Assembly: GCA_023511795.1 (NCBI GenBank)
Contig: JAIMAU010000021.1
Location: 1-34,265, forward strand
Origin: Armatimonadota bacterium
GTDB taxonomy: Bacteria > Armatimonadota > UBA5829 > DTJY01
Direction: 5' to 3'
DNA: 34,265 nucleotides
The notes below the pieces were generated by a model. The model did no database searches, was not told the origin of the DNA, and saw only the letters and a list, made by a program, of their open reading frames with translations. The translations under genes were made by a program, and so were the position numbers. The number at the start of each line of letters is the position of its first letter. Within the stretch, counting starts at the first letter, position 1. Below are positions 11,012-17,127 of the stretch, one piece after another.

Positions 11012-11127
11012 TGCCGGCTTAAACACTTACTGAGGAATTATCTGTAACCAAAAGAAGTTATTGCGGTTGAGATTATTGATTTGAACCGTGCTTTCAGTCC
11101 TCTACTTACTGAGGAATAGTCTGTAAC
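11012..11127 (-). CRISPR. Trailer end of a CRISPR array: repeat, 42-nt spacer, degenerate terminal repeat
   Basis: Repeat R3 (11091–11127) and terminal repeat R4 (11012–11048) enclose a 42-nt spacer (11049–11090), the only gap of normal spacer size. Read on the minus strand the 37-nt repeat begins GTTGCAAACAATTCCTC and ends GTAGAGGACTGAAAG; TCCTC and GAGGA form the hairpin expected for Cas6 processing, and the GACTGAAAG end fits a crRNA 5' handle. R4 keeps its first 24 nt (11025–11048, two differences) but its last 13 nt are unrelated, destroying the hairpin. This is typical of the repeat farthest from the leader, so the array is read from high to low coordinates. Confidence 0.85.
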
Positions 11128-11282
11128 TGCCCTCCGGTTTCCCAAAGCCAAATCGCCGCGATAAGCGCTCCGATGCCCAGAACCGCGGCCAGATCTTTCA
11201 GCGTAGTCAGCTGTCCGTACGCTGTCGCAGTAAGCGCCAGCGTCAGCACAAATCGCACTAGCTGATCTGCAAGCTCTCCCAT
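11106..11282 (-). CDS. Small two-helix membrane protein, holin-like, ending inside CRISPR repeat R3
   Basis: The ATG at 11282 follows AGAGGGAG at good spacing. The 58-residue product has hydrophobic helices LVRFVLTLALTATAYG and LAAVLGIGALIAAIWLW, an architecture common in phage holins and small plasmid proteins. The final six residues LQTIPQ and the stop come from the repeat, so the natural C terminus is missing or the junction is artificial. Upstream genes in the same segment are tightly packed as in mobile elements. The holin label is a guess from topology only. Confidence 0.45.
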   Translation of the reverse strand: MGELADQLVRFVLTLALTATAYGQLTTLKDLAAVLGIGALIAAIWLWETGGQLQTIPQ

Positions 11283-11342
11283 GCTTATCTTCTCCCTCTT
11301 GTTGTTGTTCAAGCCAGCTCGCCGGCTCAGATGTCAACGGGT

Positions 11343-11597
11343 TCATCTTTTCGAAACTTCTTGCGGCAGTTTTATCTCAAGCCAATATGGCGGCTCTATC
11401 CCATAGCGCGAGCACGCTTCAAGCATGAGCGCGCGCAGAAGATCCCAAGTCCCGTTCGCCGCCGCATCCATCCGCTCGCTTACGTCTAAAAATCGGTTCT
11501 TAAACCGTTCGTATTCTAGCCGTGTGAGCCGTCTGTATGTTGTCTTCAGTATTTGCTGAACATCATCTGGCAAGGGTCGTTTCCGCGACTTAGCCAT
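11343..11597 (-). CDS. Hypothetical basic protein, mobile-element-like
   Basis: The start is the ATG at 11597, preceded by AAGGAGG and overlapping the stop of the upstream helicase fragment (ATGGCTAA). The 84-residue product starts MAKSRKRPLPDDVQQIL, is highly charged and mostly helical, and ends IKLPQEVSKR. I do not recognise a family. The overlapping stop/start arrangement and base composition richer in G+C than the flanking host genes suggest a phage or plasmid gene. It is the only complete gene in this inter-repeat segment. Confidence 0.5.
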   Translation of the reverse strand: MAKSRKRPLPDDVQQILKTTYRRLTRLEYERFKNRFLDVSERMDAAANGTWDLLRALMLEACSRYGIEPPYWLEIKLPQEVSKR

Positions 11598-11907
11598 TGC
11601 TTTTTGCCTCCTTCTTCTTTTTGGATCCGCCTCTGGTCCCCTGTTGCTTGAGTTTTTTGCGCAAAGCATCGACTTCAGCTCTCGTTATGCCCGCAAGCTT
11701 CAGGAAGTCATCGTAAGTCAGTTCGGGCGGCTCTTCAGAGAAGTCGCCGTGGACAATGGCCTTCTGGCCCGCGGCTTTTCTCTGCACAAGCTCAAGCTTG
11801 TGCCTTTCGACGCTGTTGTCCATCATCAGTCTTATAATCGCCACGTCGGACTTCTGCCCAGGCCGGTAGATTCGGCCCTCCCTCTGCTCAAGGATATCCG
11901 GCCGCCA
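11590..11907 (-). CDS. C-terminal fragment of an SNF2/DEAD-type helicase, cut by CRISPR repeat R2
   Basis: The frame is open from the repeat edge and reads ILEQREGRIYRPGQKSDVAIIRLM followed by SVERHKLELVQRKA. This matches helicase motif VI (Q-x-x-G-R-x-x-R-x-G-Q) and the segment after it in SNF2-like proteins, which many phages encode. The tail is acidic and then very basic (GGSKKKKEAKSNG). All upstream helicase motifs are missing because the repeat sits exactly at the break. The fragment therefore cannot be functional as assembled. Confidence 0.6.
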   Translation of the reverse strand, partial: WRPDILEQREGRIYRPGQKSDVAIIRLMMDNSVERHKLELVQRKAAGQKAIVHGDFSEEPPELTYDDFLKLAGITRAEVDALRKKLKQQGTRGGSKKKKEAKSNG

Positions 11908-11908
11908 A

Positions 11909-11945
11909 CTTTCAGTCTTCTACTTACTGAGGAATTGTCTGCAAC
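11909..11945 (-). CRISPR. Isolated CRISPR repeat R2
   Basis: This copy matches the 37-nt repeat with G instead of A at minus-strand position 7 and one change in the right arm of the hairpin (GAAGA for GAGGA). It separates two protein-coding stretches of 483 and 781 nt, far longer than spacers. A TAA stop on one side directly abuts it, and an open frame on the other side starts at its edge. Confidence 0.85.
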
Positions 11946-12271
11946 TTATGAATGCTGGCATTGATCGTCCTCATCCTCAACTTCCTTCATCAGCTCCGCA
12001 AGCGACTTCACTACTTCCTCGGCGTTGTGCGGATGGGCAAGCACTTCCGCATAGCTTGACATCCAGCAGTAAATCTGATATGCAAAAGCGGCGATCTCGG
12101 CGGCCGCACTCCACCGGTCTTTGGGCGGCGAAAGCGGCAGAATAGCAGACGCAAGCGCAAGACTTCGCTGTTCAATATAGCCAGAAACAGCGTCGATGTC
12201 CGAAAGAAACTCAAAAAACTGACCATTCGGTCGACATCTGCCGCATTTTTCTTTGTTTTTATCAAACTCAT
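11946..12271 (-). pseudogene. Hypothetical mobile-element-like gene with a homopolymer frameshift
   Basis: The ATG at 12271 has AAAGGAGA upstream and begins MSLIKTKKNAADVDRMVSF. At a run of six T on the coding strand (12213–12218) the sensible frame switches; adding one T gives a continuous ~108-residue protein continuing FFEFLSDIDAVSGYIEQR, a helical middle, and an acidic tail VEDEDDQCQHS. The TAA at 11946–11948 directly touches repeat R2. I recognise no family. The indel may be a sequencing error or real decay. Confidence 0.45.
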
Positions 12272-12309
12272 GGCAATCTCCTTTACTTGTAATTGCTCCT
12301 TTGCTATCC

Positions 12310-12426
12310 CTAGTCACTCTGCAAGCCAAACAAGTATTCGCGCATGTCTCTGTAAGCTTGCGCCCGAACTTCCGCATAGCGAGCTTCAAGCTTTTTCTCG
12401 TAGTTATGCGAGCGGCTAGCCTTGCG
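12310..12426 (-). CDS. C-terminal fragment of an unknown protein, cut by CRISPR repeat R1
   Basis: The frame enters from the repeat edge and reads RKASRSHNYEKKLEARYAEV, then YRDMREYLFGLQSD and TAG. The charged heptad-like helix looks like true coding sequence. The start is lost at the repeat. It is followed 38 nt later by the next gene with its own Shine–Dalgarno, a compact arrangement expected of a phage or plasmid. Confidence 0.35.
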   Translation of the reverse strand, partial: RKASRSHNYEKKLEARYAEVRAQAYRDMREYLFGLQSD

Positions 12427-12428
12427 CG

Positions 12429-12465
12429 CTTTCAGTCCTCTACTTACTGAGGAATTGTTTGCAAC
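12429..12465 (-). CRISPR. Isolated CRISPR repeat R1, abutting the Cas3'-like gene
   Basis: This is the best-preserved of the four repeats with an intact TCCTC/GAGGA hairpin. Divergence increases from R1 to R4, so R1 is nearest the leader side. No AT-rich leader precedes it: the Cas3'-like reading frame runs straight in and uses the repeat's own TAA as its stop. Confidence 0.85.
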
Positions 12466-14476
12466 GTCAAATCCGCCACGGCGTTCAACCGTTCACCAAT
12501 GCGCCCTAATTGCTCATTGATAAGGTAATGGCTGGCATCCAGCAGTTGTGAAGCCGACGCATAATTGCGGCAGGGAAACGCTCCGACGATCTTCGCAGAG
12601 AAATCTTCACGGCTTATCTTCTTTTTGTCAAGACCGCCAAGTTCACTGTAAACGTCGCCGCTCACAAATGTGATGACCTTGCTTCCTTTCCCGTGTCGCC
12701 CTACGCAACCGAACCTTTGTAGAAACGAGTTACCTTCGCATTCTTCAGTGATTAGAACATCAGCGTCAAAATCAACGCCGACTTCTACCGCCGACGTTGA
12801 AATAAGCACAGCTCTCTCCAAATCGGTAAAAACGTTTATCAAGCCTTCACGCGCCTGCTTTGCCATGCTACCCGAATAGATGATAACAGGCACGTCAGTA
12901 TCCTTCCACAAGCCGATGTGCCGACAATCGATGTCTAGTTCACCAGAATCTAAACCTGCTTTAACTGCCTCACGTATTTTATCCGCTTCGTCCTTTTCAA
13001 CCAGCCATTCCAACCATCGTAGATAGACCGGGCGATGACTAAAGCTGCTAGTTGGAAGTTGAGCTGGATCGGCATTCATCTCAAAGGTAAGTCGTTTTGT
13101 TAGTAGCAACGCTAATTCATTATCCAAGCCTGCAGAAACAAAAGTATTTGTTAGGTCTGAAAACTTAGTTGCTTTGCAACAGATAGGATCATCTGCAATG
13201 TTGCTCAACTTCTCTACTGTGTCAGTGAGCCATTCGTCAATGATGGCTTGTTGCTTATCTTCGCCTTCTACCCGCTCTAACCGATTACGTACGGCGCCAA
13301 TAATGCGATATGGCAAAGGGCGATTGTTCAAAAGAGACTCCCACGTCTCACCTGTGCGTTGGCTTCGTTCATGCACAGCTCGTTTGACCTGCCAGCATTG
13401 CCTCTCTAAAATCTCAGTGGTGTGGGCGACGACCTCTTGCAATGGCAGTTTAAGCTCTACTCCATCTCGGGCATCTGCTAGAACAACGTCTTTCGCGCGA
13501 AATAATTTTTCGTTCAGTTTGTCTAGGATTTGTTTCTCGATGCTTTTTTTCTAACAATTCAATTAAGTCCCCAAACTTAACAGCGCAAAAATTTTAGGCG
13601 ATGTTCGACAGGAATTGCGGATGACTCGTTGACCTTACATTTTTCAAATAATTGGTGCGCCATGCGAGCTGAATTGCAGATGACTAATACCTTATGGCAA
13701 CCTTTATTAAGCGTTTCATCGACAGCGCTTACAAAACATTCAACGCGGTTTCTCAAACTACTAGAATGAAATTCTACTTGCACATCACAGCACTTGGATT
13801 TTCCACAAATTTGTTTTGCGTTGTTCAGGCATTGTAATGCTCTTGTCGGCGTTGCAGTAAGAATGTGAAGTCGAAGTGTTCTACCTATGAAATTAGCAAG
13901 CGTTTTTATACGTCTCCACAAATGCTCAAAATTTTTCAACATTAATCCGTTAAATAGATGCGCTTCATCCAATACAAATTCGTCTACCTGACATAATCTA
14001 TAAAGAAGCAGGGCGTTATATTTTACATTTTTTCGAAAGAACCAATAGATCTCATCAGGTGTTGCAAGAAGAATGCGCTTACTCAGACATTGTATGAGCT
14101 CAGAGCGCGACATTCCTCCCTGAATTTGTCCTATCTGATTACTAAAGCCAATTGCTTCTGCAAGAGATTCCATAACTCCCCTTTGATCCTCGAGGAGAGC
14201 AACTGTAGGGTACATAAACAAGACTTTACTTATTTTTCCTTGCTGGAGCTTGCAGAAGAGTGGAATAGCAACTGCCAAAGTCTTGCCGGATGCAGTACCA
14301 GCGGTAAGCATGACCTCCTTATCTTTAGAGATAATATGAAATACATCGTTCTGGTGTTCGAATGGTAGTACATCTTCCCTACCCAGGTAAGAACGCAAAA
14401 GTATTAAATGCTCTTTACGTACCCTTCTTTTGTTTTCAAAAATAGGACGAGTATTCTGCACAATAGCTCTAATCAT
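12444..14476 (-). pseudogene. cas3: CRISPR-associated helicase Cas3' (type I-D-like), frameshifted and C-terminally cut
   Basis: The N-terminal part (14476–13577) has the ATPase core: FEHQNDVF (Q motif region), TAGTASGKT (Walker A), VLDEAHLFNG (DEAH box) and LTATPT (motif III). The second part has ISTSAVEVGVDFDADVLITE and SFLQRFGCVGRHG, very close to the VDVGVDF…QRLGRLGRH pattern of type I-D Cas3'. Two indels join the halves: one extra T in a T5 run near 13592–13600 and one extra A in an A7 run near 13544–13550. Removing both gives a single ~660-residue frame. Motif VI has Cys where Arg is normal. The 3' end runs into CRISPR repeat R1 and stops within it, so the usual C-terminal domain is missing. 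No HD nuclease is seen. Confidence 0.75.
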
Positions 14477-15033: not shown

Positions 15034-15327
15034 CCCATCCAAAGGGACTCTCGCCCCATCAAAAGGGTCCCAAGCACCATGCGATGGGACCCAAGTACCA
15101 TCCCAAGGTTATCGCATACCATCCGGCGGTTGCTTTCTACCATCCGACGGTTGCTTTCTACCATCCGACGGTTGCTTTCTACCATCCGATGGTTGCCTTC
15201 TACCATCCGATGGTTGCCTTCTACCATCCGACGGTTGCTTTCTACCATCCGATGGTTGCCTTCTACCATCCGATGGTTGCCTTCTACCAAGCGATGGTTG
15301 CAGTGTGCCAGCCGATGGAAACTGCGA
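15034..15327. repeat. 21-nt tandem repeat array, about 14 units
   Basis: Units of exactly 21 nt run without gaps; the best eight (15118–15285) differ at three positions only. Two linked variants alternate: A has ACGG with GCTTTC, B has ATGG with GCCTTC, ordered A'-A-A-B-B-A-B-B. Units decay toward both ends. Each B unit has ACCATC-C-GATGGT, a 6-bp inverted repeat with one central base; the A change still allows a G·U pair if transcribed from the minus strand. Because 21 is a multiple of three, several frames stay open, giving heptapeptides such as MVEGNHR (minus) or YHPTVAF (plus). I see no reason to call any of these a real protein. It ends about 57 nt before the FnIII-like gene. Confidence 0.9.
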
Positions 15328-16169: not shown

Positions 16170-17127
16170 TTATCCTACGATTTCATATTTTCCCATGCCG
16201 AATACTGGGGAGTCGCCGACGTGGGTGAACATGCCCAAGACGAGGTATGGAAGGAACTCCTCCATCTCTCCTTTGTAGGTTACGTCGCCAACGATGCCTT
16301 CGTGGGGTATTCGCCGCCCTTGGCGGTTCGAGACATGCTCCCAATATATTTGGTCGAGATTTCCACTGGCGATTTTCACCTTTTCTGCGCGCTCGTGAAT
16401 GCCTGCGTAGTCTAGCTGGGGCCATTCGCCGCAGTGGCCGGCGGAGAGAAGTGATATTCGGCGGAGAAGGTTTCGCATTAGGATGTGGAATTCTGGCCGA
16501 AATGCGGGCTTATGGTTGTATGTTAATCGCGTGCAGGTTAGAAAGCGAATTTTCAGGTTATCTTTTGGCAGTCGCTCTGCATATTTGACCATGTCGGGGT
16601 ACTTCAGCACGACTGTAGTGGAGCGGACAACTGAGTCGGCGGGGTCGTAGACGACTTCGCTGCTGGCAGTTAAATCATTAACCGCGTAGATTTTCCCTAA
16701 CGTAAAAGGCGCTCTTCCTTTTCCGATGCCAGCCTCTCCGAGTTCTCGAAGGGTTACTAACGAAGTATGGAAGATATTCTATTGCGTTGCCGAAAAGGAT
16801 AAGCCGCATTAGCAGGAGTTCCCCCTCTTCGTATTCCTGCTTATTTTCTAGGGGAGGCTCGATGACGAAGGGGCGAGGGAATTTGCTGTACCCAACGGTG
16901 CCTTTCTGCTCTGGAGTCGCAGGGGTTTCGAATATGTAGGCATATGCGCATTTTGGTTCCAGCTCACAGCCTTCGCAGGTCTTTACGGACGGCTGATAGC
17001 AGACAAGCCGCTTGAACTGCATGGTGAGTGCGCCGCGAAGGGTACTGCCCTTGAACGGCGGGAGGAAAAGCGGCCCAGCACAAATCAGCTCGATTTCGTA
17101 TGAGCTCAAAAGAAATTTGGAAAGCAC
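16170..17127 (-). pseudogene. cas6: CRISPR endoribonuclease Cas6, one-base frameshift
   Basis: Cas6 cuts CRISPR transcripts at the repeat hairpin. The N-terminal part (17127 to about 16762) has the RAMP signature GPLFLPPFKGSTLRGAL and a CEGCELEPKCAY cluster. After EYLPYF the original frame degenerates, while the +1-shifted frame reads VTLRELGEAGIGKGRAPFTL and continues to the glycine-rich C-terminal motif FTHVGDSPVFGMGKYEIVG. One missing base near 16759–16762 accounts for the break. The restored length of about 318 residues is normal. A promoter lies just upstream. The gene is separated from the Cas3'-like gene by the tandem repeat and FnIII-like gene. The frameshift could be decay or a sequence error. 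Confidence 0.85.

What the first reader, a model, noticed from the sequence alone, without database searches (positions are those of the whole stretch)
11012..12465. CRISPR repeats separated by 483- and 781-nt protein-coding segments instead of spacers
Seen: four copies of one 37-nt repeat, decaying in order from R1 to R4. R3–R4 are 42 nt apart as in a real array, but R1–R2 and R2–R3 enclose gene pieces: a helicase motif-VI fragment, a holin-like protein, an 84-aa basic protein and two others. Reading frames are cut exactly at repeat edges, and two unrelated frames end in the same LQTIPQ because the repeat supplies the stop. The most economical explanation is an assembly that left the array through a spacer identical to a protospacer, ran along the targeted element, and returned through another spacer. 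If so, the first and last ~35–45 nt of each segment are spacers, and the inserts identify a co-occurring element that this host targets. The alternative, real kilobase-scale insertions flanked by CRISPR repeats, would be new biology.
Basis: partly seen in the sequence, partly recalled or inferred. Interest (0 to 1): 0.75.

Follow-up and report, generated by a model that had tools for sequence, protein, structure and literature searches.

The report
Phage gene fragments between CRISPR repeats
A broken bacterial CRISPR locus shows two pieces of what looks like virus DNA, 781 and 483 bases long, exactly where 40-base immune memories should sit; this is most likely a genome-assembly error made possible by virus-matching spacers, but a real capture of oversized virus pieces is not ruled out and a simple read check would decide it.

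Summary
Four copies of one 37-nt CRISPR repeat lie at 11012-12465. R1-R2 enclose a normal 42-nt spacer; R2-R3 and R3-R4 enclose 781 and 483 nt of coding-like DNA. (The finding places the 42-nt gap at R3-R4; it is at R1-R2.) A sister species (G001, same genus) carries a normal 45-repeat array with the same repeat at the same locus, beside III-B and type I cas genes. Against it, G000 lacks about 16 kb: no cas1 or RAMP genes in the genome, cas6 frameshifted, and a different cas3 frameshifted and cut within 15 nt of R4. cas6 dN/dS of 0.08 means inactivation is recent. Segment 1 is phage DNA: a helicase tail 60% identical to IMG/VR phages, with the next gene also matching, and homology running to the exact R3 edge. 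Segment 2 has no relatives. Best explanation: the assembly switched between spacers and identical protospacers (0.45). Rivals: oversized spacer integration (0.22), in vivo spacer-protospacer recombination (0.12), ordinary decay (0.12). The cas3 junction, mutated repeats, dead cas genes and failed indirect PAM tests weigh against the assembly reading; intact phage frames and lack of precedent weigh for it. Reads are needed to decide.

The parts
11012..11048 (-). R1, trailer-end degenerate repeat (24-nt core 11025-11048), abutting the flank conserved with G001
11049..11090 (-). normal-length spacer (42 nt)
   Evidence: G001 spacers are 35-44 nt
11091..11127 (-). R2, repeat
11128..11908 (-). segment 1 (781 nt, GC 54%): phage helicase C-terminal tail 11590-11907, 108-aa ORF 11343-11669 (overlapping it), holin-like 52-aa frame running into R2 (11131-11286)
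11909..11945 (-). R3, repeat
11946..12428 (-). segment 2 (483 nt, GC 50%): frame open from the R4 edge (147 aa from its first start codon) whose TAA stop lies at the R3 edge, plus a 38-aa C-terminal-like frame at the R4 edge; no relatives found
12429..12465 (-). R4, repeat
12466..14476 (-). cas3 fragment (model PDLC01533, 897 positions): matched over 5-306 and 304-661, frameshift at the T7 tract about 13544-13553, then cut within 15 nt of R4; last ~236 model positions absent
16170..17127 (-). cas6 with a 1-nt insertion relative to intact G001 cas6 (dN/dS 0.08)

Best explanation
The four repeats and the flanks are the real trailer end of a recently inactivated CRISPR-Cas locus. The phage pieces between R2, R3 and R4 are most likely not in the chromosome: the assembly left the array through a spacer identical to a co-occurring phage, followed the phage for 781 or 483 nt and came back through another matching spacer. 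The outermost 35-44 nt of each segment would then be true spacers. The R4-cas3 junction would be the same kind of switch (a spacer matching cas3) or a real deletion. Shown: repeats, locus homology, phage identity of segment 1, exact edge at R3, inactive cas genes. Inferred: that the junctions arose in silico.
For: Segment 1 is colinear with IMG/VR phage contigs (helicase 60% over 83 aa, next gene 38% over 53 aa) and homology stops within 1-2 nt of the R3 edge, whereas in the phage about 900 further helicase residues lie upstream. G001 has a normal array with the same repeat at the same place and no long spacers, so long spacers are not a property of this system. The phage frames are open despite private repeat mutations, as expected of live phage DNA. 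The segments occur nowhere else in G000 or 100 relatives. The last spacer base in crRNA sense is A/T in 33 of 40 G001 spacers (p=3e-4); segments 1 and 2 both end in A. [quoted passage not shown]
Against: It needs about five switches, one into a host cas3, which implies a spacer against the host's own cas3 or an independent deletion ending within 15 nt of R4; that edge ends in C, the last base of only 1 of 40 G001 spacers. R2, R3 and R4 each carry mutations, whereas nearly all G001 repeats are identical, so they look like one old, decaying array end, where perfect matches to a current phage are unlikely. The system that should hold fresh spacers is dead in this genome. A C at -2, the only PAM feature inferred (indirectly), is absent upstream of a 35-44 nt spacer at the left end of segment 2, and YCN is absent there and at cas3. 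The assembler and read type are unknown, and switching requires k of about 38 or less.
Confidence: 0.45

Rival explanations
1. Real oversized spacers: the adaptation complex (Cas1-Cas2, perhaps without proper trimming by Cas4) inserted untrimmed phage fragments of 781 and 483 bp, duplicating the repeat each time exactly as for a normal spacer; later a deletion from within cas3 to R4 removed the leader and adaptation genes.
For: Repeat-segment-repeat with exact edges and a conserved crRNA-sense 3' base is what integration would give. R3 and R4 share T28, as expected if one leader-proximal repeat was copied. The phage codon just upstream of segment 1 is a conserved proline, so CC probably lies at -2/-1, a possible PAM at the outer end, while inferred PAMs at internal candidate spacer starts are mostly missing. 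Loss of Cas4 shifts spacers to greater lengths in one system, though only slightly (PMC9419969).
Against: All 44 G001 spacers are 35-44 nt. I know of no natural spacer of this size and found none in the papers searched. Cas1-Cas2 measures its substrate with a fixed ruler (own knowledge). The phage frames show no decay.
Confidence: 0.22
2. Real recombination in the cell at spacer-protospacer identity: array DNA between two spacers was replaced with phage DNA between the matching protospacers, and recombination between a self-matching spacer and cas3 deleted the cas genes in between. The topology equals the assembly error, but the product is in the chromosome.
For: One rule explains all five junctions. 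It would explain why cas1, the RAMP genes and the rest of cas3 are missing from a 97.6% complete genome. Self-targeting is known to provoke deletions at the target in Haloferax (PMC7521656, abstract).
Against: About 38 bp of identity is short for homologous recombination, and two double exchanges with phage DNA are needed. Ku was not found in G000 or G001, so classical end joining is not available as an alternative. The PAM and last-base tests fail at the cas3 edge.
Confidence: 0.12
3. Ordinary decay: a dying array was rearranged by unrelated insertions and deletions, and the precise edges are partly coincidence (only the R3-segment 1 edge is fixed by homology).
For: The locus is inactivated and about 16 kb shorter than in G001. 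The cas3 junction is known only to within 15 nt, and three of the four segment edges have no homologue to fix them. In G001 a 7.7-kb cmr module and a cas1 remnant also sit between repeats of this locus.
Against: The one edge that can be measured is exact to 1-2 nt, and coding frames run to the other edges.
Confidence: 0.12

Closest known systems
G001 CRISPR-Cas locus of the same genus (45-repeat array, cas4-cas1, Cas7/Csa2-Cas8a-Cas3, plus III-B cmr operon)
   Same: Same 37-nt repeat, same chromosomal site, 93% identical flanks, same cas6 and 218-aa gene.
   Different: Normal spacers of 35-44 nt, near-identical repeats, intact cas genes, a different cas3 type; no segment 1 or 2.
IMG/VR phages L015-L017 (UViG_3300045930_000277 and two others)
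   Same: Helicase C-terminal tail and the following gene match segment 1 in order and orientation.
   Different: Only 60% and 38% protein identity, so not the source phage; nothing like segment 2 in the 17-20 kb fetched.
Chimeric contigs at CRISPR arrays in short-read metagenome assemblies
   Same: Repeats or spacers shared between replicons make assembly graphs join unrelated DNA.
   Different: No published case with two successive phage inserts was found here; no reads are available to prove it.
Spacer integration by Cas1-Cas2(-Cas4)
   Same: Foreign DNA between two copies of the repeat with exact edges.
   Different: Segments are 12-20 times a normal spacer of this system.

Membership tests
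CRISPR array | direct repeats conserved in sequence and found in a bona fide array elsewhere | tested here: met
CRISPR array | regular spacing by unique spacers of similar length | tested here: not met
   42, 781 and 483 nt, against 35-44 nt in G001
CRISPR array | adjacent cas genes including adaptation genes | tested here: not met
   only frameshifted cas6 and truncated cas3; no cas1 or RAMP genes in G000
Assembly chimera through spacer-protospacer identity | segment is contiguous foreign phage DNA up to the repeat edge | tested here: met
   segment 1 at R3; untestable for segment 2
Assembly chimera through spacer-protospacer identity | PAM upstream of a 35-44 nt spacer at the internal ends | tested here: inconclusive
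   PAM not known for G000; CCN at none of three internal ends, TCN at one; no protospacers found
Assembly chimera through spacer-protospacer identity | no reads span the junctions; coverage differs from flanks | not testable with these tools
   no reads held
Oversized spacer integration by Cas1-Cas2 | foreign fragment with a repeat copy at each side and exact edges | tested here: met
   (sequence as assembled; exactness measured at one of four edges)
Oversized spacer integration by Cas1-Cas2 | adaptation genes present | tested here: not met
   no cas1 in G000 now; may have been lost recently (cas6 dN/dS 0.08)
Phage-borne solitary repeat or mini-array | repeat lies between intact phage genes | tested here: not met
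   R3 cuts the phage helicase mid-gene and segment 2 is not its missing part

The most novel reading that the evidence does not exclude
The segments are physically present: this bacterium inserted phage fragments of several hundred base pairs precisely at CRISPR repeat borders, by oversized spacer integration or by recombination between spacers and phage targets, shortly before the system died.
Probability: 0.36. Interest if true: 0.85.

Novelty: not a real feature. Interest (0 to 1): 0.4.

Why it matters
If the segments are real they would show that the adaptation machinery, or repair at CRISPR repeats, can capture pieces of phage DNA of gene length, a possible route for phage genes into chromosomes and a challenge to the fixed-ruler view of spacer acquisition. 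If not, the case is a clear example of how spacers that match phages in the same sample can write phage genes into host genomes during assembly, a trap for anyone reading CRISPR loci in metagenome bins, and a way to name the phage a host targets.

Tried and rejected
Phage-borne solitary repeat: rejected because R3 cuts the helicase mid-gene. Integron-like cassettes: rejected, genes are cut at the edges. Shared microhomology between edges: longest shared word 7 nt. Classical end joining: Ku not found in G000 or G001. Source phage inside the bin: only unrelated SNF2-type helicase hits on other contigs. Other genomes or viral contigs with the repeat: none in genome contigs or viral contigs; only G001 among 40 relatives. 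Protospacers of G001 spacers, to fix the PAM: none convincing. Relatives of segment 2 and of the 108-aa ORF by peptide scan of viral contigs: none. Homologues of this cas3 in 291 genomes of the phylum: none. A seeming match of segment 2's first bases to a G001 spacer is mostly repeat and was taken as chance.

Full report
WHAT IS THERE. The window is the whole contig C21 (34,265 bp) of a 3.09-Mb, 35-contig genome, 97.6% complete. Four direct copies of one repeat lie at 11012-11048 (R1, only a 24-nt core), 11091-11127 (R2), 11909-11945 (R3) and 12429-12465 (R4). Shuffled windows never gave a 37-nt match better than 14 mismatches; R2-R4 have 1-2. One detail of the finding is wrong: the 42-nt spacer is between R1 and R2; the 781-nt segment is between R2 and R3 and the 483-nt segment between R3 and R4. 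No other copy exists in the genome.

THE LOCUS. A species of the same genus (G001) has the same repeat 45 times in a regular array (spacers 35-44 nt) at the same place. The two contigs are colinear at about 93% left of 11018 and right of 14540. Between these points G001 has about 19.7 kb: a lone repeat, a III-B cmr operon, the array, a leader, cas4, cas1, Cas7/Csa2, Cas8a and a Cas3. G000 has only 3.5 kb. Its leader-proximal side is R4 and its trailer end is R1, by the orientation of the G001 array (degenerate repeat at one end, leader and cas4-cas1 at the other).

THE LOCUS IS RECENTLY DEAD. No cas1 and no RAMP gene is found in G000. cas6 has one inserted base but dN/dS 0.08 against the intact G001 copy, like its neighbours (0.04-0.17), so it was under selection until recently. 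The cas3 at 12466-14476 is of another family than that of G001; it matches PDLC01533 at model positions 5-306 and 304-661 of 897, with a frameshift at a T7 tract near 13550, and its homology ends 15 nt from R4. About 236 model positions and everything downstream are gone. The two frameshifts in about 3 kb of cas genes contrast with none counted in about 14 kb of flanking genes (p=0.03; small indels at the very start of two alignments were taken as edge effects), which speaks for real inactivation rather than a generally poor sequence.

THE SEGMENTS. Segment 1 read on the minus strand begins at R3 with WRPDILEQREGRIYRPGQ, motif VI of an SNF2-type helicase, and runs to the natural stop; it is 60% identical over 83 residues to a 986-aa helicase of three IMG/VR phages, at residue ~900, and the next gene also matches. 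At DNA level the match reaches to 1-2 nt from the repeat edge and stops. So this edge is exact. Upstream in the phage the codon is a proline (conserved in this motif, own knowledge), hence CC probably at -2/-1. Segment 1 ends in a holin-like frame that runs into R2. Segment 2 has an open frame from the R4 edge (147 aa from its first start codon) that stops at the R3 edge, and no relatives, so its phage origin is only likely by analogy. Neither segment occurs elsewhere in G000 or 100 relatives.

HOW IT AROSE. All models must explain repeat-exact edges. An assembly that switches between a spacer and its identical protospacer does so without new biology, and explains intact phage frames. It needs about five switches at a k of about 38 or less, including one into the host's own cas3. 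The last base of G001 spacers in crRNA sense is A/T in 33 of 40 (p=3e-4); segments 1 and 2 end in A, the cas3 edge ends in C, seen once in 40. So the segment ends look like spacer ends, the cas3 edge less so. The PAM could not be fixed: no protospacers of G001 spacers were found. Overlapping spacers in G001 suggest TCN at one site (my inference from an aspartate codon), and I-A systems commonly use CCN/TCN (own knowledge). CCN occurs at none of the three internal candidate starts and TCN at one. This is weak evidence against spacers at the far ends, which both switching models need, and for capture of whole fragments. R2-R4 each carry mutations, as in an old array end, where exact matches to a present phage are unexpected; R3 and R4 share one change, as if copied from one repeat.

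JUDGEMENT. The prior against kilobase spacers is strong: none in G001, none found in the literature searched, while chimeric contigs at arrays are acknowledged (PMC6617893). I keep the assembly reading first at 0.45, with real capture in its several forms at about 0.36 together. The novelty label follows the leading reading and is not a demonstration that the inserts are false.

Noticed in passing
window 15035-15301; also G000:C14:3123-3302 (L050) and G001:C15 about 56.1 kb: A 21-bp tandem repeat (TACCATCCGATGGTTGCCTTC and variants, with an inner CCATC..GATGG inverted repeat) recurs at several places in both genomes.
   Followed up: partly
G001:C15:35945-43720 (L013:945-8720): In the sister species a 7.7-kb III-B cmr operon lies between a lone repeat and the array's degenerate terminal repeat, and a cas1 C-terminal remnant (NQLQCRRVVSFLRGERDYKPFI) sits about 40 nt from that terminal repeat.
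   Followed up: partly
window 12466-14476 versus G001:C15:53162-55507: The two species carry cas3 genes of different families at the same locus while sharing cas6 and the repeat: the effector module was exchanged.
   Followed up: partly
G001:C15:43955, 44783, 44857: Three spacers start at exactly the same position of three homologous viral-like sequences (crRNA sense GTYTCTAYCGTGCCNACAYTTAYAA), a sign of PAM-fixed acquisition from related viruses.
   Followed up: partly
G000:C14:5960-6370 (L050): Another C-terminal fragment of an SNF2-type helicase, joined out of frame to the end of an unrelated 229-aa gene.
   Followed up: no
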